Shown: one piece after another, positions 3,113-32,454 of the stretch
How positions within the stretch are numbered: the stretch's first letter is position 1
How the letters are laid out: each line of letters starts with the position of its first letter
IMG/VR virus record: IMGVR_UViG_3300032893_003189
Coordinates: 1 to 46,014 of that record
Direction: 5' to 3' (one strand)
Source: a virus
Length of the DNA stretch: 46,014 nucleotides
Translations under genes and position numbers: made by a program
Notes under the pieces: model-generated
Seen by the model: the letters and a program-made list of their open reading frames with translations, nothing else
Databases searched by the model: none
Told to the model about the DNA's origin: nothing

Positions 3113-4057
3113 ATGTCAAACGATCTTCAAATAAACGACCTGACGCGCGAGCTTGCGGCGGCGTACAAGGTGTCGCCGGATGAATTGGTAAAAACCACAA
3201 AGGCGATCTGCTTTCCCGGCGGCGCGGCCAGCAACGAACAGCTTTTCGTTTTCCTCACGGTCGCGCGCCAGCATGATCTCAATCCGTTCCTGCGCGAGCT
3301 ATACGCTTTCGTCAGCGGCGGCAAGCTGCAAGTAATCGTCGGCTTCGACGGCTGGGTTAAGCTGGTGAATCGCAATCCGAATTTCGCGGGCTTTCAGTTC
3401 GAGGATCGGCTGGACGACAAAGGCAATCTCGTTTCCGTGACGTGCCGCATGTGGCGTAAGGACTGGGGCGCGCACCATGGCGAAACGACGGAATACCTTG
3501 CGGAATGCGTCGGCACGACAGAGCCGTGGAAGAAGTGGCCGCACCGGATGCTTCGCACGAAAGCATACATTCAATGCGCGCGACTTACGTTCGGGTTCGC
3601 TGGCGTGATAGACCCGGATGAGGGCGAGCGCATAGAACATCCTGAATCGTGGTCGAACCAAAAAACTCCAGCGGCGGCGCGGGTGGTGGAGGCGGAAGTC
3701 GTGAAAGAGGAACCCGCGCCGCCCGCTGCCGTCGAAAATGCCGCTGTAGCTCAAGGGACAGAGCAGGCTGCTTCTATCAGCACGGTTGCGGGTTCGATTC
3801 CTGCCAGCGGCGCAGCTACCGCCCCGGAGGCCACGCCACCCAAGCGCGGGAGACCGCCGAAAGCGGCAGCGCCGGCCCCCGTCAATCCGCCCACCGCAGG
3901 CGGCGACCCCAAAGTGAAACTCAAGGAACTATGGGCGGCACTTCCGAGCGCGCGGCAGACCGTGATGCTCGGTCAGGCGGGCGTCGCCAAGTTCGACGAT
4001 CTGACGGATGAGCAGGCGTCAAAAATCGTAGAGAAAATCGAAAAGAGAGGACGCTAA
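3113..4057 (+). CDS. bet: Bet/RecT-family single-strand annealing protein, 314 aa
   Basis: This is a phage recombinase that anneals complementary single strands during recombination and end repair, partnered by the exonuclease at 2147. The core (about residues 1-185) has family-typical blocks: FLTVARQHDLNPFLRELYAF, then LQVIVGFDGWVKLVNRNPNFAGFQF, and a late block WPHRMLRTKAYIQCARLTFGFAGV. After it comes a long Ala/Pro-rich linker with an AT-hook-like KRGRPPK, then a short helical C-terminal domain (KVKLKELWAALPSARQTVMLGQAGV). Residues 210-234 of the linker are encoded by DNA that is at the same time a complete tRNA gene sequence (3740-3812), with no stop codon. The ORF is the first gene of the rightward replication operon. 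AGA codons occur at 3851 and 4046, both downstream of that tRNA. Confidence 0.85.
   Translation: MSNDLQINDLTRELAAAYKVSPDELVKTTKAICFPGGAASNEQLFVFLTVARQHDLNPFLRELYAFVSGGKLQVIVGFDGWVKLVNRNPNFAGFQFEDRLDDKGNLVSVTCRMWRKDWGAHHGETTEYLAECVGTTEPWKKWPHRMLRTKAYIQCARLTFGFAGVIDPDEGERIEHPESWSNQKTPAAARVVEAEVVKEEPAPPAAVENAAVAQGTEQAASISTVAGSIPASGAATAPEATPPKRGRPPKAAAPAPVNPPTAGGDPKVKLKELWAALPSARQTVMLGQAGVAKFDDLTDEQASKIVEKIEKRGR
3740..3812 (+). tRNA. tRNA-Arg(UCU)-like gene embedded in bet
   Basis: A full cloverleaf can be drawn. The 7-bp acceptor stem 3740-3746 with 3805-3811 is perfect. TA fills positions 8-9. The D-stem GCTC/GAGC has an 8-nt loop containing GGG. The anticodon stem 3766-3770 with 3778-3782 has four pairs plus one G-A mismatch at the top. 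The 7-nt loop CTTCTAT has anticodon TCT. The 5-nt variable region is CGGTT. The T-stem GCGGG/CCTGC has one G-U, and its loop TTCGATT fits the TTCRANY consensus. CCA is not encoded. It lies on the same strand and in frame with bet. It could be a working gene, a captured fossil or an RNA-processing signal. Confidence 0.8.
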
Positions 4058-9631: not shown

Positions 9632-10588
9632 TCATAGCGCTCCTTTGAGCGGGTGGTTCTCGAACGCATCCACGGCCCGGACGTAGGAGTCCAGGCTTTG
9701 CGTTGACCGATGCCGGGATAGCTGCCGGAGTTGCCACTGATTGGCTCCAAGGCGGGCGCCGGTCGTCAATGCGCCAGAGCGGAGCGAATGGCCGGCCAGA
9801 TTGTCCGCATCGATCCCGCACTCTGCGGCGCGGGCCTTCACGATTGCGGCGACGCTGCCAGCCGCCAGCGGCTCCGCCAGCCTGCCACCCTTGCGGATGC
9901 GCCGGAAAATCGGTCCTGATGGCCCTGGCAAATGGGAAAGCCATGCTTTGAGGGCTTCCAGCGGGCAAGTTTCCCCTATGCCGGGCCTAACCGCTACGGT
10001 CTGCCCCTGACCGCCTTGATCCGTCTTTGAGCGGCGGATCGTGATTGTCAGGCCGTCGGTGCCGAATTCCAGATCATTGACTTTTAAGTCAACCAGTTCC
10101 GAGCGGCGTAAAGCGGCCGCAAAGCCCAGCAGAATAAGCGCCTTGTCCCGAATGGCGGTTAATCCCGGCTCTTTGCTCAAATGCCGCGCGATCGTCCTGA
10201 TTTGCTCGGCGACCAGTGCGTCTTTGGGATGCGCGGCGCTGCCCTTGGCATTGCGAATGCCAGTTAGCTGCCCCCGCACAATTTCAGCCGAAGTAGGGTC
10301 ATTGAGGTTGTATGCGCGATGAACCGCCCGAATTGCCGCAAGACGCCGCTTGAGAGTAGAGGCGGAAACTCCGCGATCGGCTTGGTCTGCAAGAAACCCC
10401 GCCAGAATGCGCGGTTCAGCCGGGAAAGCCCGGATGTTTCGCGTTGAACACCATTCCGCAAAGATGGCAATATCGCTGACATAAGCGCGCAGGGTATTGC
10501 GAGCGTGCCGGTTGGTTGCGTATTTGCGCGCGGATTCTTCGACTTGCGTGGGAAGATAATCGGGGGAAATTTCAACCAGTTCATTCAT
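9632..10588 (-). CDS. int: tyrosine recombinase / integrase, 318 aa
   Basis: Site-specific recombinase expected to integrate and excise the phage or resolve its multimers. The N-terminal SAM-like core-binding domain covers residues 1-105 (HARNTLRAYVSDIAIFAEWC). The catalytic domain shows Arg in FAAALRRSELVDL near 162, a Lys-bearing hairpin RRSKTDQGG near 186, the box H-S-L-R-S-G near 267-272, a second His in LSRHRSTQSLDSY, and the nucleophile Tyr in LDSYVRAV near 303. All six catalytic positions are present. The ATG at 10588 has a GGAGGG site 7 nt upstream. It overlaps the next gene by 4 nt. No obvious attP is seen beside it. Confidence 0.85.
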   Translation of the reverse strand: MNELVEISPDYLPTQVEESARKYATNRHARNTLRAYVSDIAIFAEWCSTRNIRAFPAEPRILAGFLADQADRGVSASTLKRRLAAIRAVHRAYNLNDPTSAEIVRGQLTGIRNAKGSAAHPKDALVAEQIRTIARHLSKEPGLTAIRDKALILLGFAAALRRSELVDLKVNDLEFGTDGLTITIRRSKTDQGGQGQTVAVRPGIGETCPLEALKAWLSHLPGPSGPIFRRIRKGGRLAEPLAAGSVAAIVKARAAECGIDADNLAGHSLRSGALTTGARLGANQWQLRQLSRHRSTQSLDSYVRAVDAFENHPLKGAL

Positions 10589-10839
10589 CGGACGCCCTCC
10601 AATGCCGCCCTCAGAGTCGCGTAATCATGTACGCGCGTAATCACGGTTGAATGGAGACTTGATCCGCGGTGAAGGACCGGAATTCGGACATCCAGGGCCG
10701 TGCCGGATGGCGCGATCTCCGCCGTGGCTCCGTGGTCCGCGCAAATAGCCATCATGGCGCGGAGTTCCTGTTTTGTCTTTGCAGCGTATGGGCTGCCGGC
10801 AGTCTCATCGGTTGAGAAAGAGAATTTGCGACTTGTCAT
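10585..10839 (-). CDS. hypothetical protein, 84 aa
   Basis: Small soluble protein co-transcribed with the integrase through a 4-nt overlap. The GGGGAGGTGACAAA leader gives a clear ribosome-binding site before the ATG at 10839. The middle reads as alternating strands and helices (KTKQELRAMMAICADHGATAEIAPSGTALDVRIP). The position just upstream of int would suit an excisionase-type factor, but no helix-turn-helix is evident, so the function stays open. Confidence 0.6.
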   Translation of the reverse strand: MTSRKFSFSTDETAGSPYAAKTKQELRAMMAICADHGATAEIAPSGTALDVRIPVLHRGSSLHSTVITRVHDYATLRAALEGVR

Positions 10840-11564
10840 TTTGTCACCTCCCCGAAAATACCGCCGAATATCGAGTTAAAATGGTCGCGTTGCCATTTGA
10901 TTTCCGCAGCAGCCCCCGCAGCAGCCCACGCAGCAGCCCGCGCAGCCCCCGCAGCAGCCCACGCAGCATTCCCCGCAGCCCCCGCAGCATCCCACGCAGC
11001 AGCCCGCGCAGCATTCCCCGCAGCATCCCACGCAGCAGCCCGCGCAGCATTCCCCGCAGCAGCCCGCGCAGCAGCCCACGCAGCAGCCCCCGCAGCCCAC
11101 GCAGCATCTTGCGCAGCATCCCACGCAGCAGCCCCTATTTTCCCATTGGCGAAATCACGGGCAGCTTGGATTGCTTCGCGGGGTCGCTTGTCGTTTGGAT
11201 AGTCGCGCTCGAATATATACAGCGCGCGCTCCGCGCAATCGGCGGCGAATAGACGTAACTCGCGGTCAATGTTGACTGCTGCGATTAGCTTGCGACTGAC
11301 TGCAACGCCCTTGCGCTGGTTTTCGTCACCATCTTCCGCCACCACGTCGATCACTTCCACTTTGCAGGCCAGCGGTCCAGGCGCGTAAGGCAGCGCATCC
11401 CACAGCGTCGGCGAAAAGTGGTAGCCGTATTTGCAGAGCGCAATCTTTGAGCGATCGGCAATGGTGCGTGTCTCGCCGATCTTCCAAGGTTTCTCATCAC
11501 CACTGCCCGCGCTAAAATCTTCACGCAGGAAGTGGTAGCCGATTATTGGTTTCTGTTTGCTCAT
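10836..11564 (-). CDS. Ala/Trp-repeat protein with DUF7666-like N-terminus, 242 aa
   Basis: Residues 1-140 form a compact domain (IIGYHFLREDF, KIALCKYGYHFSPTLWDAL, ACKVEVIDVV) that resembles phage proteins annotated from memory as DUF7666. Residues 144-220 are a low-complexity helix-forming repeat built from AAWAAA, ARAAAG, GNAARA and WDAAG units, almost wholly Ala with regularly spaced Trp, Arg and Asp. The C-terminus (KWQRDHFNSIFGGIFGEVTK) is again ordinary. The DNA of the repeat (10905-11135) is a tandem GCAGCCC-type repeat open in several frames. Function unknown. The start at 11564 is chosen because its ATG overlaps the upstream stop codon. Confidence 0.65.
   Translation of the reverse strand: MSKQKPIIGYHFLREDFSAGSGDEKPWKIGETRTIADRSKIALCKYGYHFSPTLWDALPYAPGPLACKVEVIDVVAEDGDENQRKGVAVSRKLIAAVNIDRELRLFAADCAERALYIFERDYPNDKRPREAIQAARDFANGKIGAAAWDAAQDAAWAAGAAAWAAARAAAGNAARAAAWDAAGNAARAAAWDAAGAAGNAAWAAAGAARAAAWAAAGAAAEIKWQRDHFNSIFGGIFGEVTK
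10905..11135. repeat. degenerate tandem repeat coding for the Ala/Trp region
   Basis: About 230 bp built of variants of GCAGCAGCCC(A/C/G)CGCAGC and GCAGCATTCCCC on the plus strand. The periodicity is a mix of 12-, 15- and 21-bp units, all multiples of three, so copy-number changes keep the reading frame of the minus-strand gene. It is likely to be length-variable between relatives. Confidence 0.8.
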
Positions 11565-11791
11565 AGCTGACCGCCTCTCAATCGGTCGTGCCGCGCTGCC
11601 CGCTGGTAAATCCTGCAAGGGCAATCGTCGCATACGTCGCCATCGTGATAATGCCCGCACCGACAAGCTGGCTTACAAATCGGGCAGACCGCCAGAATGT
11701 TGGCCGCGTAATGGTTGCCACAATCGGGGCATCGGCGGTAAACGATTTGCGCGTCGATTTCGTCTTGCTCTGTGAAGTCTGAAATGTGCAT
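11561..11791 (-). CDS. cysteine-rich zinc-ribbon protein, 76 aa
   Basis: From the Met at 11791 the protein holds CPDC, CPIC, CRC and CDDCPC cysteine clusters, enough for two zinc sites, in a rubredoxin/treble-clef style arrangement. The C-terminus is basic. A GTG start at 11869 would add 26 residues and overlap the upstream gene by 25 nt; the ATG at 11791 with GAGAGGGG upstream is preferred, but the longer form is possible. The downstream end overlaps the Ala/Trp-repeat gene by 4 nt. Binding partner unknown. Confidence 0.6.
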   Translation of the reverse strand: MHISDFTEQDEIDAQIVYRRCPDCGNHYAANILAVCPICKPACRCGHYHDGDVCDDCPCRIYQRAARHDRLRGGQL

Positions 11792-13213: not shown

Positions 13214-13242
13214 TTGACACAATGTAGCCGTTTGTAGATAAT
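13214..13242 (+). promoter_or_regulatory. strong rightward sigma70-type promoter (candidate late promoter)
   Basis: TTGACA at 13214-13219 (perfect), a 17-nt spacer and GATAAT at 13237-13242 (five of six). Expected transcription start is about 13249-13250. The spacer carries the 18-bp element repeated at 12707-12724, so a repressor bound there would occlude RNA polymerase. The promoter reads into the tRNA-like leader and the gene at 13350, and no other obvious promoter is seen before the long overlapping late operon. Confidence 0.7.
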
Positions 13243-13248
13243 GGCGAT

Positions 13249-13312
13249 GGCGGAGGGTCGCAGGTTCAAATCCTGCCGGAGAAATCCGTAGCGCAGTCTG
13301 GGGGCGCGCCGC
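13249..13312 (+). ncRNA. circularly permuted tRNA-like leader RNA
   Basis: In order: 5' strand of an open stem GCGG (13250-13253); variable-like AGGGTC; T-stem GCAGG/CCTGC (13260-13264 with 13272-13276) with loop TTCAAAT; then directly CGGA-GAAA-TCCG (13277-13288), a 4-bp acceptor-like stem capped by a GNRA tetraloop; TA as positions 8-9; D-stem GCGC/GCGC (13291-13294 with 13304-13307) with loop AGTCTGGGG; one nt (position 26); then CCGC (13309-13312) pairing back to the first strand. Junction lengths equal those of a canonical tRNA except for a 6-nt variable region. The 3' end leads to AGGAGG and the ATG at 13350. Confidence 0.65.
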
Positions 13313-13349
13313 ATTTTCGTAGCATAATTGCAAAAGGAGGTACGGGGAG

Positions 13350-13613
13350 ATGGAGGGAGCGTTGGGAGAGAAGAGGGCGGAGGCGATGGCGGCGTTTCGG
13401 GCGTGGGCGCGGGAGTACGCGCCGGGATGTGAGATGATGCTGGTGGTGAGGAATGGAGAGGACGTGGTGTCAACATTTGCGCGGCTGGAGATTAAGGAGG
13501 GGGAGAGCCGCGCGGCATTACGGGGGAGGAAGTTGGAGTTATTGGAGCGCGGGGTGGACACGGTGATGAATCCTTCGCAATCGGAGTTCGAGCCGGAGGA
13601 GAGAGGGAATTGA
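13350..13613 (+). CDS. hypothetical protein, 87 aa
   Basis: First gene behind the strong promoter and the tRNA-like leader. AGGAGG at 13335-13340 lies 9 nt before the ATG. The protein is a soluble alpha/beta type (MLVVRNGEDVVSTFARLEIKEGESRAAL) with a charged helical C-terminus. Codon use is strongly G-biased, as in the next gene. Its position makes it a candidate early regulator of the late operon, or the target of control by the leader RNA. No family is recognised. Confidence 0.6.
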   Translation: MEGALGEKRAEAMAAFRAWAREYAPGCEMMLVVRNGEDVVSTFARLEIKEGESRAALRGRKLELLERGVDTVMNPSQSEFEPEERGN

Positions 13614-13615
13614 AG

Positions 13616-13906
13616 ATGGAACAGGAGACGAAGCAGTTTTGCCATATTCGGCTGAAGCCGGAGACGATGCGGGCGCTGGTGGCGCGGGCGGAGGCGACGG
13701 ACCACAAGGTGGGGGCGATGGCGCGGATTCTGATTGAGAAGGGATTGGCCGCCGCGCAATCTATTACGGACGCTCCGCAGAATGGTCACGGGAAGAAGCG
13801 GAGCAAGGGGACCGCGATGGTGGAGTACGCGCTGGTGATGGCGGTGGTGGCGGCGCCGCTGATTGCGCTGGTAGGGTGGCTGACGTATATGGCGGCGCAG
13901 CCGTGA
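13616..13906 (+). CDS. ribbon-helix-helix-like domain fused to Flp-pilin-like hydrophobic segment, 96 aa
   Basis: Residues 1-45 (EQETKQFCHIRLKPETMRALVARAEATDHKVGAMARILIEKGL) have the strand-helix-helix order of MetJ/Arc-type DNA-binding proteins. After a Gly/Lys linker comes KRSKGTAMVEYALVMAVVAAP and a continued hydrophobic helix. A Gly before a small residue, then the Glu five residues into the hydrophobic run, is the class III signal pattern of Flp/Tad pilins. Start: ATG 13616 is preferred to TTG 13610. A membrane-tethered DNA-binding protein is one reading; a chimeric gene remnant is another. Confidence 0.5.
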   Translation: MEQETKQFCHIRLKPETMRALVARAEATDHKVGAMARILIEKGLAAAQSITDAPQNGHGKKRSKGTAMVEYALVMAVVAAPLIALVGWLTYMAAQP

Positions 13907-14076
13907 AGTGCATCTGCGGACACGATTACGCAAGCCACTATTACGACCTGTTACGGTCGCCAAATGCGCGTGGCCTTTTTACACGTTGCCGTGAATGCGA
14001 TGTGGAGCACTCGAATCCGGGGTTTATCGCATTCCGTCCACCTTGCAACGAATTCGTTCCGGTGAGGAACTACTAG
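13903..14076 (+). CDS. small zinc-binding protein, 57 aa
   Basis: GTG start overlapping the previous stop (GTGA). The sequence opens with KCICGHDYASHYY, then TRCRECDVEHSN and a final Cys in RPPCNEF: a C-x-C-G-H plus C-x2-C pattern that can hold one or two zinc ions. It is encoded just before the methyltransferase. Small Cys/His proteins of this kind are frequent in phages and usually unassigned. Confidence 0.55.
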   Translation: MKCICGHDYASHYYDLLRSPNARGLFTRCRECDVEHSNPGFIAFRPPCNEFVPVRNY

Positions 14077-14078
14077 CC

Positions 14079-15350
14079 GTGATCTACGGCTCCATTTGCT
14101 CCGGGATCGAGGCGGCGACCGTCGCATGGCATCCGCTCGGATGGCGGGCGGCATGGTATGCCGAAATCGAGCCGTTTTGCTGCGCGCTCTTGAAGCATCA
14201 ATATCCGGGGACGGTTAATCATGGCGATTTTACGCAAATCCGGGAATCCGAACCTCTCGATGTTCTCGTCGGCGGGACGCCGTGCCAATCCTTCAGCGTC
14301 GCCGGAAAGCGCGCGGGATTGGACGATCCGCGTGGCAACCTCACGCTCGAATTCTTTGCGCTTGCTCGCCGATTACGGCTGCGCTGGATACTTTGGGAGA
14401 ATGTCCCCGGCGTCATGTCGGATGACGGCGGACGGACGTTTGGAACCGTGCTCGGACTCCTGGCGCAATGCGGGTATGGGTTCGCCTATCGAATTCTTGA
14501 CGCTCAATATTTCGGAGTGCCACAGCGGCGCCGCCGCGTGTTCATTGTCGGATATCTTGGAGACTGGAGATATCCCGCGGCGGTACTTTTTGAGCGCGAA
14601 AGCCTGCGCGGGGATATTACGCCGGGCCGAGCGGCGCGGGAAGGAATTACCCATGCAGTTGCGGAGAGCCTTGGCGCAAGCGGCCGGGGCACCGAAAGAA
14701 CCGGCAGTTCCCGCGGACAAGACCCAGTAGTGGCAATGCCGCTGGCTAATCATCATGGAAGGAATGACCTCGATAGCACTAGGTTCGTTCCGGAGATTGC
14801 GACCAGCCTGAACGCGCGCGAAAACAAGGGGCCATTGCCGGAAGCGGGACTATCGACGGTGACCGCGCATTCGCTGCGCGCCGAGGGCTTCGACGCCTCG
14901 GAGGATGGAACCGGACGCGGGTGTCCGATTGTGCCGATTCTGGAAGCGGGCAAGCGATGCGGTAACCGGGATAGCGCGCGAGATGGACTTGGAATCGGGG
15001 AGCCGGGCGATCCGATGTTCACGCTGCAATCCGGCGCGCAACATGCGGTCATGTTCGATTACAAGCAATCGGGCGAAATCGATCCGGTGATGCGCAGCCT
15101 TTCGCACGACAAGAGCCATGCGAACAGCGGCAGCCATTTGGCGGTCGCATCGCGGACATTTGTCGGCGTGCGCCGGTTGACGCCGCGCGAATGCGAGCGC
15201 TTGCAGGGCTTTCCCGACGACTACACGGCGATTCCCTATCGCGGCAAGCCGTGCGCCGACGGGCCGCGTTATCGAGCGCTCGGAAATTCGATGGCGGTTC
15301 CGGTGATGCGCTGGCTCGGCGAACGAATCGCAATGGTGGATGCGATATGA
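14079..15350 (+). CDS. DNA cytosine-C5 methyltransferase, 423 aa
   Basis: Transfers a methyl group from S-adenosylmethionine to cytosine C5. Motifs are in the standard order: I GSICSGIEAATVAW (residues 4-17), IV G-G-T-P-C-Q-S-F with catalytic Cys69, VI W-E-N-V-P-G near 106-111, VIII Q-R-R-R-R-V near 149-154. A long variable target-recognition region follows, then IX RRLTPRECERLQGFPDDY and X RALGNSMAVPVM at the C-terminus. The GTG at 14079 with GAGGA upstream avoids the overlap created by the longer frame from 13995. No cognate restriction enzyme is seen, so it is probably an orphan enzyme protecting phage DNA. The 3' end couples to the terminase (ATGA). Confidence 0.9.
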   Translation: MIYGSICSGIEAATVAWHPLGWRAAWYAEIEPFCCALLKHQYPGTVNHGDFTQIRESEPLDVLVGGTPCQSFSVAGKRAGLDDPRGNLTLEFFALARRLRLRWILWENVPGVMSDDGGRTFGTVLGLLAQCGYGFAYRILDAQYFGVPQRRRRVFIVGYLGDWRYPAAVLFERESLRGDITPGRAAREGITHAVAESLGASGRGTERTGSSRGQDPVVAMPLANHHGRNDLDSTRFVPEIATSLNARENKGPLPEAGLSTVTAHSLRAEGFDASEDGTGRGCPIVPILEAGKRCGNRDSARDGLGIGEPGDPMFTLQSGAQHAVMFDYKQSGEIDPVMRSLSHDKSHANSGSHLAVASRTFVGVRRLTPRECERLQGFPDDYTAIPYRGKPCADGPRYRALGNSMAVPVMRWLGERIAMVDAI

Positions 15351-16633
15351 AAGACGAAGGCCGCGAGACACCATCCTGGCGGCAGGTCCAATCCTTCCAG
15401 AAAATGCTCGCCAAGGCCGGAGAGAAGCCACCGGCCGACCGCGACGAATTCAAGGCGTGGCTGAAGGAGCACGCGGAGCGGGAGTTGTGGTTTTTCAGCC
15501 GGTGGATTCTGGGGAACGAATATCTCTCGCTCGGCACGTTTCATCGGCAAATCGTCTGTCCGTACCTTACGGACTACTCGAATTCGCGGTTTAAGCTGCT
15601 GATGCTGCCGATGGGCTGCCTCAAGACGACGATCGCGAGCCGCAGCATTCCGCCTCACGCGCTGATTCAGCCGGCGGCGAAGAACATCTATTTCCCCGGC
15701 GTGAAGGGTTGCAACATCCGCACGCTGCTGGTGAACGAGAACACCGACAAGAGCAAAGAGAACTTGGCGTACATTTCCGAGCATTTGATGGAGAACAAGT
15801 GGATTTACTGGCTGTGGCCGGAAATCTGCTGGCAGCGGAAGAAGGACGCGAAGCGATGGACTGATACCGAAATCGAAGTGCCGCGCACGCGGGTCATTGC
15901 GGAGCCGAGCATCACGGCGGCGGGAATCAAGACCGGATGGGTCGGCCGGTATTACGACCTGATCGTCGCGGACGATATTTCGGCGTTGCAGGCCAGCCAA
16001 GACCCGCCGCTCATGGAGCGCGCCAAAAAGGTGCGGCGCACGCTCAAGACCCGCTTTTCGCATAAAGAGACCGGCATCTATTTGGGCGCGATGACGCACT
16101 GGGGCGCGAATGATACCTGCGTGGAATGGCGCAAAGACCTTGACTTCGAGGTCATGGTCAAGGGGATAGAGGAGCCGACTCCGGCGCCGGACGGTCCGAT
16201 GATGCCGCTGTGGCCGGAGAAATACCCGGCTGAATGGATTGAAAAGACCCGCAAGGGCATGGACCCGATTGAATTCTCTCTGTGGCTGATGAACAAACCG
16301 GTGCCGTCCGGGTACACGGCGCTGAATTGGGAGGAATTGCGGGAGTACACGCTGGAGGTTCGCGGCGACCTGAATCACCCTTACGAGGTACTGGTCTTTT
16401 CGGATGCGCCGATCGATGAGCAGATTCTCATGCGGCACGAGCGCAAGATGAACCCGGCTGGGTTCCGGTTGGGCAAGCCTCTCTCGGAGGTCTATCCCGG
16501 CAAGCCGCGGAAGCCGGGCAAAGGGCCGGAGATTGGATGGGAAGGCCAAGGCGGCTATTTGCTGAATAAATATCCGAGCTTGGAACACCCGCCGCCGAAT
16601 TACCCCAATCCGGTGCGGAGGGATGCCCAATGA
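15347..16633 (+). CDS. terL: terminase large subunit, ATPase part, 428 aa
   Basis: Motor part of the DNA-packaging terminase. Residues 86-95 contain M-L-P-M-G-C-L-K-T-T, a deviant Walker A as found in many TerL proteins. YYDLIVADDIS near 202-212 is Walker B with the catalytic acidic pair, and GIYLGAMTHWGANDT near 245 resembles coupling motif III. The frame ends at 428 aa without an RNase H-fold nuclease; that domain is encoded separately at 17013. The C-terminal tail is Pro/Gly-rich. The start at 15347 (ATGA overlap) is chosen over the long upstream extension. No small terminase subunit is recognised nearby. Confidence 0.8.
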   Translation: MKDEGRETPSWRQVQSFQKMLAKAGEKPPADRDEFKAWLKEHAERELWFFSRWILGNEYLSLGTFHRQIVCPYLTDYSNSRFKLLMLPMGCLKTTIASRSIPPHALIQPAAKNIYFPGVKGCNIRTLLVNENTDKSKENLAYISEHLMENKWIYWLWPEICWQRKKDAKRWTDTEIEVPRTRVIAEPSITAAGIKTGWVGRYYDLIVADDISALQASQDPPLMERAKKVRRTLKTRFSHKETGIYLGAMTHWGANDTCVEWRKDLDFEVMVKGIEEPTPAPDGPMMPLWPEKYPAEWIEKTRKGMDPIEFSLWLMNKPVPSGYTALNWEELREYTLEVRGDLNHPYEVLVFSDAPIDEQILMRHERKMNPAGFRLGKPLSEVYPGKPRKPGKGPEIGWEGQGGYLLNKYPSLEHPPPNYPNPVRRDAQ

Positions 16634-20072: not shown

Positions 20073-23000
20073 ATGCCGATCCGGCGCATTCGCTTCAATA
20101 ATTTCAACCGTCGCTTGGTGCTGGCTGGCGGACAGGAACAGACCGGCCCCGGCGGCGTCCGGCAGGCGGTCAACGTCGCGCCGGAAAGCACGACCTCTAT
20201 TCTCTCGCGATGGGGATCGCAATCGCTGCGCAACGGCATCGCCGCGATTCAGGCGTACTACTGGAACGGCGTCGATTACCTCTACGACGGCACGACTCTT
20301 TACGCGAGCGGCAGTTCCCTCAACGCGACGATCCATGCGAACGGAAACATTCCATCCGGCGGCTTCAATGGAAACCGGATAACTTTCGTCTCAATGCCGC
20401 CTTCACCGGGCCTGCCAGACTATCTATTTGTGCTGGGTGGCGGCTGTATTCCGTTCAAGATCGACCCGTCCGGCAACGTCACGAACTGGGGAATTCAGCC
20501 GCCCGACACGCTGACCGGGACGACTGGGATGCAGGCGGCAAATGTCGCAGCGGAGTCCACGGCGATAGAGCCGGACAACTGGGACTCCGGCACGGGATGG
20601 AAAGCCACCAATGCGGTTCTCAGCGACAATTCCGATTCCCCGACTGGCGCGGCGTACTCACTGGAAATCAATCCGGGAGCTACCGCTGAAGCGGGTCAAA
20701 TCGTCAATCCCAAGACCGTGCCGTATAGCCCCGCGCTGAATCTTTCAACCTACGCTGACGGCACTCTGTCTCTTCCGACGGACGTATTCCAGTTCTGGCT
20801 CCTGATTCACCTGCCCGCGACTCAGGCCACGACATGGGCAGAGGTGGACTTCGACGTTAACGATGGGAGTTTCAAAAAAGACTGGTACAGCTTTCAAATC
20901 GGCTTTGTATCGCCTACCGGCCAGAATCAAACCAAGACGCCATCGCACACCTACAACACGCTGTTAAATTTTCAAAGTGATCAATGGCAGTTGATTACGA
21001 TTCCCAAGAGCGCCTTCCTCCGCAATGGTGCTTCGTTGCAATACGATTGGAGCAATGTGCAGGCGATCCGGTTTCGATTTGGCAATCCGGTGCCGCCTTC
21101 CGGCTACTATCTCCTCGATAACAGCTTCACGATGTCGGGTGGTTGCGCGATGGGGGCTGGGCCGGCGGTCGGCAACGGCGGCTCTGAATACGATTACTTT
21201 GCCGTATTCCGCAACCAGACGACGGGAGCGCAATCAAATCCGCAACCCGTAGCGGCCAAAGTGTTCGGCGTGCAGGACAACACGGTCAAGGTAATAGGCA
21301 TCCCCGTGTCATCCGATGCTCAAGTGACGGCCCGCGATCTCTATCGGACGCAAGCCCTCACTGGACAGCCGGGCGGCGGCGTTGCGTTCTATCTCGACAC
21401 AATCCCCGACAACACAACCACGACGTACACGGACTCAGTGGCCGACCAGAGTATTCCGCTGACCCAAACGCCGTGGCAGAAGAATGTCAGTGTGCCGCCG
21501 AATAGCTCAGCGCCGTACTACGTCGATGGCGGCAACGGCTACTACTTCAGGCTGATCACTGGCGGCACGACTGGCGCAGCGGAGCCGTCGTGGGTCGTGC
21601 CAAGCACGGTATGGAGCCCGCAGACCTCGTTCGCGGTTAACGACACAACCTCGCAGCCCAAGGCGAACGGCCATTTCTGGAAATGCACCACGGCTGGCAT
21701 ATCCGGCAGTTCGGAGCCCGACTGGACAAAGGCCGGACCTCTCACCGATGGGACCGCCGTATGGACGGACCAAGGGGTGCAGCAGACGAACGATAACGGA
21801 GTGGTCTGGCGGTTCATGGGGATCAATTCAACCGCCGTGCTGGGGCAACCGATTGCAGCGGGCGTATCGCCCCAGTTGCTTTACGACAACACGCCACCGG
21901 CCAGCACCTACGACGACGCGATCGGGAATTTCCAAGGCTCCATGTTCTGGACGCGGGATAGCGCCAGCGGCAAGGGCGGGTATCTTTACGTCTCACCTCC
22001 GGGTCGGCCAGAAGCCGCGGCGACCGCAATTCTGGCGTGCGATCAGAACGACCCGGCTCAGAAATTGGTCGGATGGGATAGCGCGCTCTGGCTTCTATCT
22101 CAGGGACGCGGATTTCAAGTCACCGGTACCTACCCGAACTTCATCGCTCAAGAAGTCAATTTTAACTGCGGCACCTTGGCACCGTGGGCAGTCGTCGCAC
22201 TTCAGAAATTAGGAATTCTCTACTGGGCGCCGGATGGCGTCCGGGTGATGAATTGGAGCGGTTCAACGCTACTCGGCTTCGAGCAACTGGCAACCATCTT
22301 CCGAGGACAGCCGGAAGAAAACATCGCCAATGCGTGGAACGGGCAAAAGGGGTCATCGCCGATCTGGGCCGCGCTGCTACGCGATGAAGTAGTCTTTTCC
22401 GATGGCGCAAACCTGACGCTCGCGCTCGCTTACGAAGGGACGCGGCAAGGCCCGGCGTGGCGGCAAATCTCGCCTGTGCTGACCGCGCTCTATTACGCGC
22501 CGCAAGTCGGGAAGGCGATTGGCGCATTTGGCGGCAACAGTTATTGGTATGAGACTTCGGGGCAAGGTGAAGATGGAAGCACGCCCATTACGTTCACCTT
22601 GCAAACAGCGGGAGACTTCCCCGCACCTGGCGAACAGTTCACTTTCCAGCGGCTCTATATCAGTGCGAACCTCAACCAGAATCAGACCCTATCGCCGTCG
22701 CTCATCATTGACGGGGAAGCGACTGCCTTGCCGAGCATTACCGGCGCGCTCGGCATTACGCGCACCATTTACGAATTGTCGCCCAAACTGACCGGGCGGA
22801 TGCTCTCCGGCGTGATCGTGACCGGGAACCTTACGGGGCGCGTGGAAATATTCGACATCAGTGCGGATGTCTGGTTCGGGGAAGTCGCCGCGGCGATGCC
22901 GCCGGAATCCGCGTTGCAGGCGATGCCGAAACTGCAAGCTCCGGCATCTCGCGGGGATGCACCGATGCCGCCCGATATGGTAGCCAGACAGGATTTACCG

Positions 23001-32315: not shown

Positions 32316-32454
32316 TCAGGGCTTCAAGGAGACCTGCCAGATGGCGGGAGTGTTCCCCAGCCGTCGTCGCTATGCGCAATACAAGCACATCGGCAGGGAG
32401 AAATTTCTGAAACGCCGCAATGGGGGCTTGACAAATCCCCAAGCAATCAAATAA
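32278..32454 (+). CDS. small basic protein, 58 aa
   Basis: Short ORF overlapping the previous gene by 38 nt, with GTGAGGATGAGGG just upstream of the ATG as ribosome-binding region. Sequence: MERKTNREMAAIDQGFKE then a Lys/Arg-rich part (YKHIGREKFLKRRNGG). Plausible but short; function unknown. Confidence 0.45.
   Translation: MERKTNREMAAIDQGFKETCQMAGVFPSRRRYAQYKHIGREKFLKRRNGGLTNPQAIK

What the first reader, a model, noticed from the sequence alone, without database searches (positions are those of the whole stretch)
13249..13345. Circularly permuted tRNA mimic as the 5' leader of the late operon
A strong promoter (TTGACA, 17 nt, GATAAT) should start transcription at about 13249, precisely where a cloverleaf begins. 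Reading on, the elements are those of a tRNA but in permuted order: T-arm with a TTCAAAT loop, acceptor-like stem CGGA/TCCG closed by a GAAA tetraloop, TA, D-arm with GCGC stems and an AGTCTGG loop close to tRNA-Pro, one nt, and a 4-bp stem that joins the two open ends as the anticodon stem. Linker lengths (0 between T-stem and acceptor, 2 before the D-stem, 1 after it) match canonical tRNA. With a sealed acceptor it cannot be aminoacylated, so it is a mimic, perhaps recognised by a tRNA-binding or tRNA-processing host factor to control the gene at 13350 or RNA stability.
Basis: partly seen in the sequence, partly recalled or inferred. Interest (0 to 1): 0.9.

Follow-up and report, generated by a model that had tools for sequence, protein, structure and literature searches.

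The report
Phage tRNA mimic like bacterial Y-RNA
A phage carries, right behind a strong promoter, an RNA segment that imitates the body of a transfer RNA with its pieces in rotated order and its amino-acid end sealed shut; the shape is known from bacterial Y RNAs, but here the Y-RNA partner protein and its binding stem are missing, as in about 25 other phage records found here.

Summary
The element at 13250-13312 is a circularly permuted, sealed tRNA-like fold: T-arm, GAAA-capped acceptor hairpin, D-arm and a joining 4-bp anticodon-type stem. It sits directly behind one of only two 11/12 sigma-70 promoters in the window. It is not a new fold: it is the tRNA-like module of bacterial Y RNAs (YrlA, RF02553; 31.6 bits, E 7e-5, gathering score 69). 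A model built from 30 other phage modules, window excluded, also finds it (55 bits), though that model scores tandem-tRNA junctions similarly. No tRNA flanks the element, and both discriminating helices are fully Watson-Crick, seen in 0 of 64 tandem-tRNA junctions. The window lacks the other YrlA hallmarks: a basal Ro60-binding stem and a Ro60 gene. Among module-bearing phage records, Y-type stems go with a Ro60-like gene, while 25 records, including complete Erwinia phage Simmy50, have the module but no Ro60. The window belongs to this Ro60-less group, often tandem, in intercistronic gaps or tRNA clusters. Phage relatives (TerL 51%) lack the module, so it is accessory. Function is inferred only: most likely a tRNA-elbow mimic made as the structured 5' end of the downstream operon.

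The parts
13214..13242 (+). sigma-70 type promoter, TTGACA-17-GATAAT
   Evidence: 11/12 consensus; start point about 13249 inferred
13250..13312 (+). tRNA-like module (permuted, sealed), YrlA type
   Evidence: YrlA 31.6 bits E 7e-5; R1 55 bits E 1.7e-16
13250..13253 (+). 5' strand of joining (anticodon-type) stem, pairs with 13309-13312
   Evidence: sequence; helix covaries in homologues
13260..13276 (+). T-arm with TTCAAAT loop
   Evidence: sequence
13277..13288 (+). sealed acceptor hairpin CGGA-GAAA-TCCG
   Evidence: sequence; homologues use GCAA, GAAA, UUCG and UCCG loops most often
13291..13307 (+). D-arm GCGC-AGTCTGGGG-GCGC
   Evidence: sequence
13309..13312 (+). 3' strand of joining stem
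   Evidence: sequence
13334..13340 (+). ribosome-binding site AAGGAGG, 9 nt before ATG 13350
   Evidence: sequence
13350..13613 (+). 87-aa protein of unknown function, first gene after the module
   Evidence: no Pfam or PHROG match; codon-position GC like the phage's other genes
13616..13906 (+). 96-aa protein of unknown family
   Evidence: longer frame 13610-13906 gave no Pfam or PHROG match
13995..15350 (+). C5 cytosine DNA methylase
   Evidence: PF00145 E 8.7e-54
15191..16633 (+). terminase large subunit
   Evidence: phrog_38 E 4e-24

Best explanation
Shown: the element is a YrlA-type tRNA-like module, a permuted tRNA core with a GAAA-sealed acceptor, without the Ro60-binding stem and without a Ro60 gene on the contig. 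Inferred: RNA polymerase starts at about 13249, so the module is the very 5' end of the transcript of the 13350 operon, with its first nucleotides paired. Inferred: as an intact tRNA elbow that cannot be charged, it is bound or modified by host enzymes that recognise tRNA elbows (TruB and Dus modify YrlA; PNPase binds the YrlA module). Most likely it acts as a decoy or adaptor of such factors, and as a 5' cap-like structure it also shields the transcript. Acquired as an accessory element with its own promoter.
For: YrlA match and independent model match. Four helices with both-side changes in 30 phage modules: score 0.642 against 0.155 shuffled, 95% of cells paired against 34-50% when slid. 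Unselected swap control: joining stem of 4 bp or more in 44 of 76 sites against 8.2 expected, acceptor hairpin in 61 against 6.9. Canonical YrlA between rsr and rtcB in Rhizobium etli pA is found by the same model at 60-61 bits and by Rfam at 92. No tRNA overlaps the element. Promoter 7 nt upstream, no terminator-like site nearby, strong RBS downstream. No TROVE or phrog_850 Ro60 in the window; no basal stem, z -0.1 and -0.7. Elbow-enzyme and PNPase facts on YrlA: PMC8394870.
Against: Score is below the Rfam gathering threshold. The leader's minimum-energy fold is different. No RNA data. The contig may be a fragment, so a Ro60 gene outside it is possible. No close homologue of this very leader was found, so covariation rests on homologous modules, not on this locus. 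R1 also scores tandem-tRNA junctions at 41-65 bits, so its score alone does not prove permutation.
Confidence: 0.72

Rival explanations
1. An ordinary Y RNA: the transcript starts further upstream, forms a divergent Ro60-binding stem around the module, and works with a host or unsampled phage Ro60 as a PNPase tether.
For: Rfam aligns the whole family model 1-114 to 13231-13337. Ro60-bearing phages carry the same module.
Against: The aligned basal stem has many non-standard pairs and is no better than shuffles. Its 5' strand would overlap the -10 box of the only promoter found. Ro60-like genes found in module-bearing records lie close to the module, about 1.2 kb or less where positions were compared, and none lies within 13 kb upstream or 32 kb downstream here.
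Confidence: 0.12
2. Remnant of two adjacent tRNA genes: the 3' half of one and the 5' half of the next, with the pairing by chance.
For: T-arm and D-arm sequences are tRNA-like, and tandem tRNA junctions score 41-65 bits with R1.
Against: No tRNA on either side. Only 12 nt lie between T-stem and TA, less than two acceptor strands plus a discriminator. Both discriminating helices Watson-Crick: 0 of 64 tandem junctions; with G-U allowed 1 of 64.
Confidence: 0.05
3. Core of an attP site matching a host tRNA 3' end.
For: The phage has a tyrosine integrase (9632-10588); the T-arm is a common tRNA sequence.
Against: attP cores usually lie beside int; this is 2.7 kb away with genes between. A T-arm core does not explain the sealed acceptor, D-arm and joining stem, and integrase-independent phages have the same module.
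Confidence: 0.03
4. A cis-acting operator: the module is bound by a tRNA-binding protein and switches translation of the 13350 gene, perhaps through the competing 13250-13254/13285-13289 pairing.
For: It lies in a 5' leader with a strong RBS 21 nt after it. Paired modules stand 21-22 nt before a start codon in L070 and L027, and one 70 nt before a major head protein in L158. A competing fold exists.
Against: Genes downstream differ from phage to phage; many modules lie in tRNA clusters; relatives lack it; the RBS is not in the structure.
Confidence: 0.2

Closest known systems
YrlA bacterial Y RNAs (Rfam RF02553; Salmonella YrlA structure PDB 6CU1 as cited in PMC8394870)
   Same: Same order T-arm, sealed acceptor, D-arm, joining stem; same linker lengths; same conserved tRNA core bases
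   Different: No basal Ro60-binding stem, no Ro60 gene on the contig, directly at a promoter and followed by an RBS and gene; score below the family's gathering threshold
Phage Y RNAs beside Ro60 genes (Gordonia VanLee, Forza; Xanthomonas 10KY502B; Enterococcus CCS1; Listeria CKA15 as proposed in PMC12282133)
   Same: Same module in phage genomes
   Different: Those records have a Ro60-like gene close by
Circularly permuted tRNA genes of algae and archaea (PMC3978253, PMC3218864)
   Same: 3' half of the tRNA precedes the 5' half
   Different: There the precursor is circularised and cut to a functional tRNA; here the acceptor is a 4-bp hairpin with a GAAA loop, too short for a mature acceptor, and no CCA or discriminator is encoded

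Membership tests
YrlA Y RNA (RF02553) | tRNA-like module with T-arm, sealed acceptor, D-arm, joining stem | tested here: met
YrlA Y RNA (RF02553) | score at or above the curated gathering threshold (69 bits) | tested here: not met
   31.6 bits, (phage Y RNAs beside Ro60 also score below it)
YrlA Y RNA (RF02553) | basal stem of the 5' and 3' ends that binds Ro60 | tested here: not met
   flank pairing z -0.1 and -0.7; GUUAY motif absent
YrlA Y RNA (RF02553) | Ro60/Rsr gene close by | tested here: not met
   no PF05731 or phrog_850 in 46 kb; contig may be a fragment
YrlA Y RNA (RF02553) | binding to Ro60 and PNPase, tRNA-type modifications | not testable with these tools
   needs biochemistry
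Permuted tRNA gene | full acceptor and CCA or discriminator after processing | tested here: not met
   4-bp acceptor closed by GAAA; ARAGORN and Rfam call no tRNA here
Tandem or decayed tRNA genes | intact tRNA halves on the outer sides | tested here: not met
attP site in a tRNA gene | identity to a host tRNA 3' end next to int | tested here: inconclusive
   host unknown; genome search for capsid relatives found none

The most novel reading that the evidence does not exclude
Phages carry a widespread class of Ro60-independent, sealed, permuted tRNA mimics, singly, in tandem pairs or fused into the anticodon end of a tRNA-like body, which act on host tRNA-binding enzymes or tRNA-targeting defences rather than as Y RNAs. 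The window holds one at the 5' end of an mRNA.
Probability: 0.5. Interest if true: 0.75.

Novelty: new variant of a known kind. Interest (0 to 1): 0.55.

Why it matters
Bacterial Y RNAs are described, in the papers I could read, as tethers that join Ro60 to PNPase through their tRNA-like module. A set of phage RNAs that keep the tRNA-like module but have neither the Ro60 stem nor Ro60 suggests the module has a job of its own. That makes it directly testable what binds a tRNA elbow that can never be charged: PNPase, tRNA-modifying enzymes, or anticodon nucleases (a competitive-inhibitor role for YrlA was already suggested in PMC7790460).

Tried and rejected
Folding energy as evidence: not unusual. 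Blast of the leader against phages: only tRNA-like pieces, but it led to Erwinia and Enterococcus phages. Relatives through the 87-aa protein: one weak, unrelated locus. Relatives through TerL patterns: none. Relatives through the portal: ten loci, none with the module. Host through capsid proteins in bacterial genomes: none. R1 score as sole proof: rejected, because tandem tRNAs score alike. Permuted tRNA gene that matures to a tRNA: rejected because of the short GAAA-capped acceptor. Literature: Chen 2014, Wang 2018 and the Sim and Wolin reviews are not held, so whether Ro60-less modules were noted before could not be checked.

Full report
Observation. TTGACA 13214-13219, 17 nt and GATAAT 13237-13242 form an 11/12 promoter; only one other such site exists in the 46 kb, at 32428. 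The 63 nt 13250-13312 read joining stem, variable region, T-arm, GAAA-sealed acceptor, UA, D-arm, G, joining stem. All positions that hold a tRNA elbow together are occupied by the expected bases. Folding energy is not unusual, and the 97-nt leader has a rival minimum-energy fold. The case therefore rests on comparison, not on energy.

What it is. Rfam at its gathering threshold finds only the tRNA-Arg at 3740, but a permissive scan of 701 nt finds one sensible hit, YrlA, at 13231-13337, 31.6 bits, E 7e-5. YrlA is the bacterial Y RNA whose module mimics tRNA; it is modified by DusA and TruB, and in RYPER the basal stem binds Rsr/Ro60 while the module binds PNPase (PMC8394870).

Independent test. 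Pattern scans of IMG/VR gave many T-arm/short-loop/D-arm sites. Of 76 distinct sites without an overlapping tRNA, including the window's own, 61 have an acceptor hairpin of 4 bp or more (6.9 expected when strands are swapped between sites) and 44 a joining stem of 4 bp or more (8.2 expected). Thirty complete modules, window excluded, align well: 95.4% of cells pair, covariation score 0.642 against 0.155 in shuffles and 0.15 at most when slid. These thirty were chosen for having both helices, so the swap control is the fairer test. The model R1 built from them finds the window at 13250-13312 with 55 bits and canonical YrlA genes between rsr and rtcB on Methylosinus and Rhizobium plasmids with 60-69 bits. 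A caution: R1 gives 41-65 bits to junctions of tandem tRNA genes too. What separates the window from these is that no tRNA lies on either side, the linker is too short, and both helices are Watson-Crick throughout, which holds for 0 of 64 tandem junctions.

With and without Ro60. Most fetched sites fell into two groups by their flanks before any protein search was made (note). One has a long basal stem with conserved sequences such as GGUUACUUC or CAGCAA. The other has none. TROVE (PF05731) was found in 9 of 35 records. All 9 records (of 36, with L085) that carry the GUUAY motif have TROVE, against 1 of the 27 without it (Fisher 1e-7). phrog_850, which matches every one of these TROVE proteins, also marks the Enterococcus phage gene and its like as Ro60 relatives. 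Counting both models, 25 of the 35 records have a module and no Ro60-like gene, as does the window. Most of these are contigs of unknown completeness; Erwinia phage Simmy50 is a complete genome. Where positions were compared, Ro60 genes lay within about 1.2 kb of the module, so the absence here, with 13 kb on one side and 32 kb on the other, carries weight. The window's flanks show no basal stem.

Context. Ro60-less modules are often in tandem, two in a row 2-3 nt apart (L027, L070, L076, L082, L091, L101, L104, L126). They lie either in tight gaps between same-strand genes, for instance 21 nt before the gene after a head maturation protease in L070, 22 nt before a gene in L027 and 70 nt before a major head protein in L158, or in tRNA clusters (L047, L080, L082, L091, L151, L167). 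In the window, a strong RBS (13334-13340) and a small gene follow, then a methylase and TerL. The nearest relatives of this phage share TerL (51%), portal (54%) and capsid protein (65%) but have no module. The element is therefore an accessory piece with its own promoter, not a fixed part of the late operon's control.

Mechanism. The transcript probably begins at the first base pair of the joining stem and runs into the operon, since no terminator-like site was found. The sealed acceptor excludes charging. What remains is an intact elbow, which host enzymes that read tRNA elbows should still bind. I put most weight on elbow mimicry as a decoy or adaptor with a side benefit of a closed 5' end, less on a cis operator, and least on a hidden Y RNA or a relic. 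None of these steps beyond the fold has been shown.

Novelty. The fold is known; module plus Ro60 in phages is known (PMC12282133 and PMC7824862; Gordonia VanLee is annotated Ro-like). I found no mention of Ro60-less modules in the open library, but the key papers on YrlA are not held. I therefore call it a new variant of a known kind.

Noticed in passing
L038 11320-11460; also L145, L151, L167: A tRNA-like body whose anticodon stem (AGCGT/ACGCT in L038) is capped by a second, permuted and sealed tRNA module, so two tRNA cores appear to share one stem end to end. Read from sequence; the predicted minimum-energy fold of L038 is different.
   Followed up: partly
L004 1320-1386 and 1496-1568 (Enterococcus phage CCS1, ON113170.1): Unannotated YrlA-like RNAs just upstream of a phrog_850 gene (a Ro60 relative). 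They may correspond to the very abundant RNAs of unknown kind upstream of an Rsr-like gene reported for Listeria phage CKA15 (PMC12282133).
   Followed up: partly
L324 (Xanthomonas phage 10KY502B, record 20198-22107): Up to three modules, one overlapping an annotated tRNA-Thr, next to gene0032, annotated hypothetical, which matches the Ro60-like family phrog_850 (E 6e-60).
   Followed up: yes
L069, L085, L154 and others: Repeated copies of a basal-stem hairpin (GGCGUAG...GGUUACUUC...CUUGUUCC), some with and some without the tRNA module, near Ro60 genes: looks like arrays of Y RNAs.
   Followed up: no
window 3740-3813: A tRNA-Arg(TCT) gene called inside the open frame of the RecT-like gene 3113-4057, beyond its conserved domain; possibly an attachment-site relic or an overlapping tRNA.
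   Followed up: no
window 32428: A second 11/12 sigma-70 promoter (TTGACA-16-AATAAT) in the structural region.
   Followed up: no
window 13616-13906: A 96-aa protein with what looks like a ribbon-helix-helix-like N-terminal half and a hydrophobic TAMVEYALVMAVVAAPLIALVGW tail resembling a Flp/TadE pilin segment; no family match.
   Followed up: no
window 10836-11666 (-): Protein with an Imm-5-like domain (PF21805, E 4e-8) near the integrase; possible accessory defence or immunity gene.
   Followed up: no
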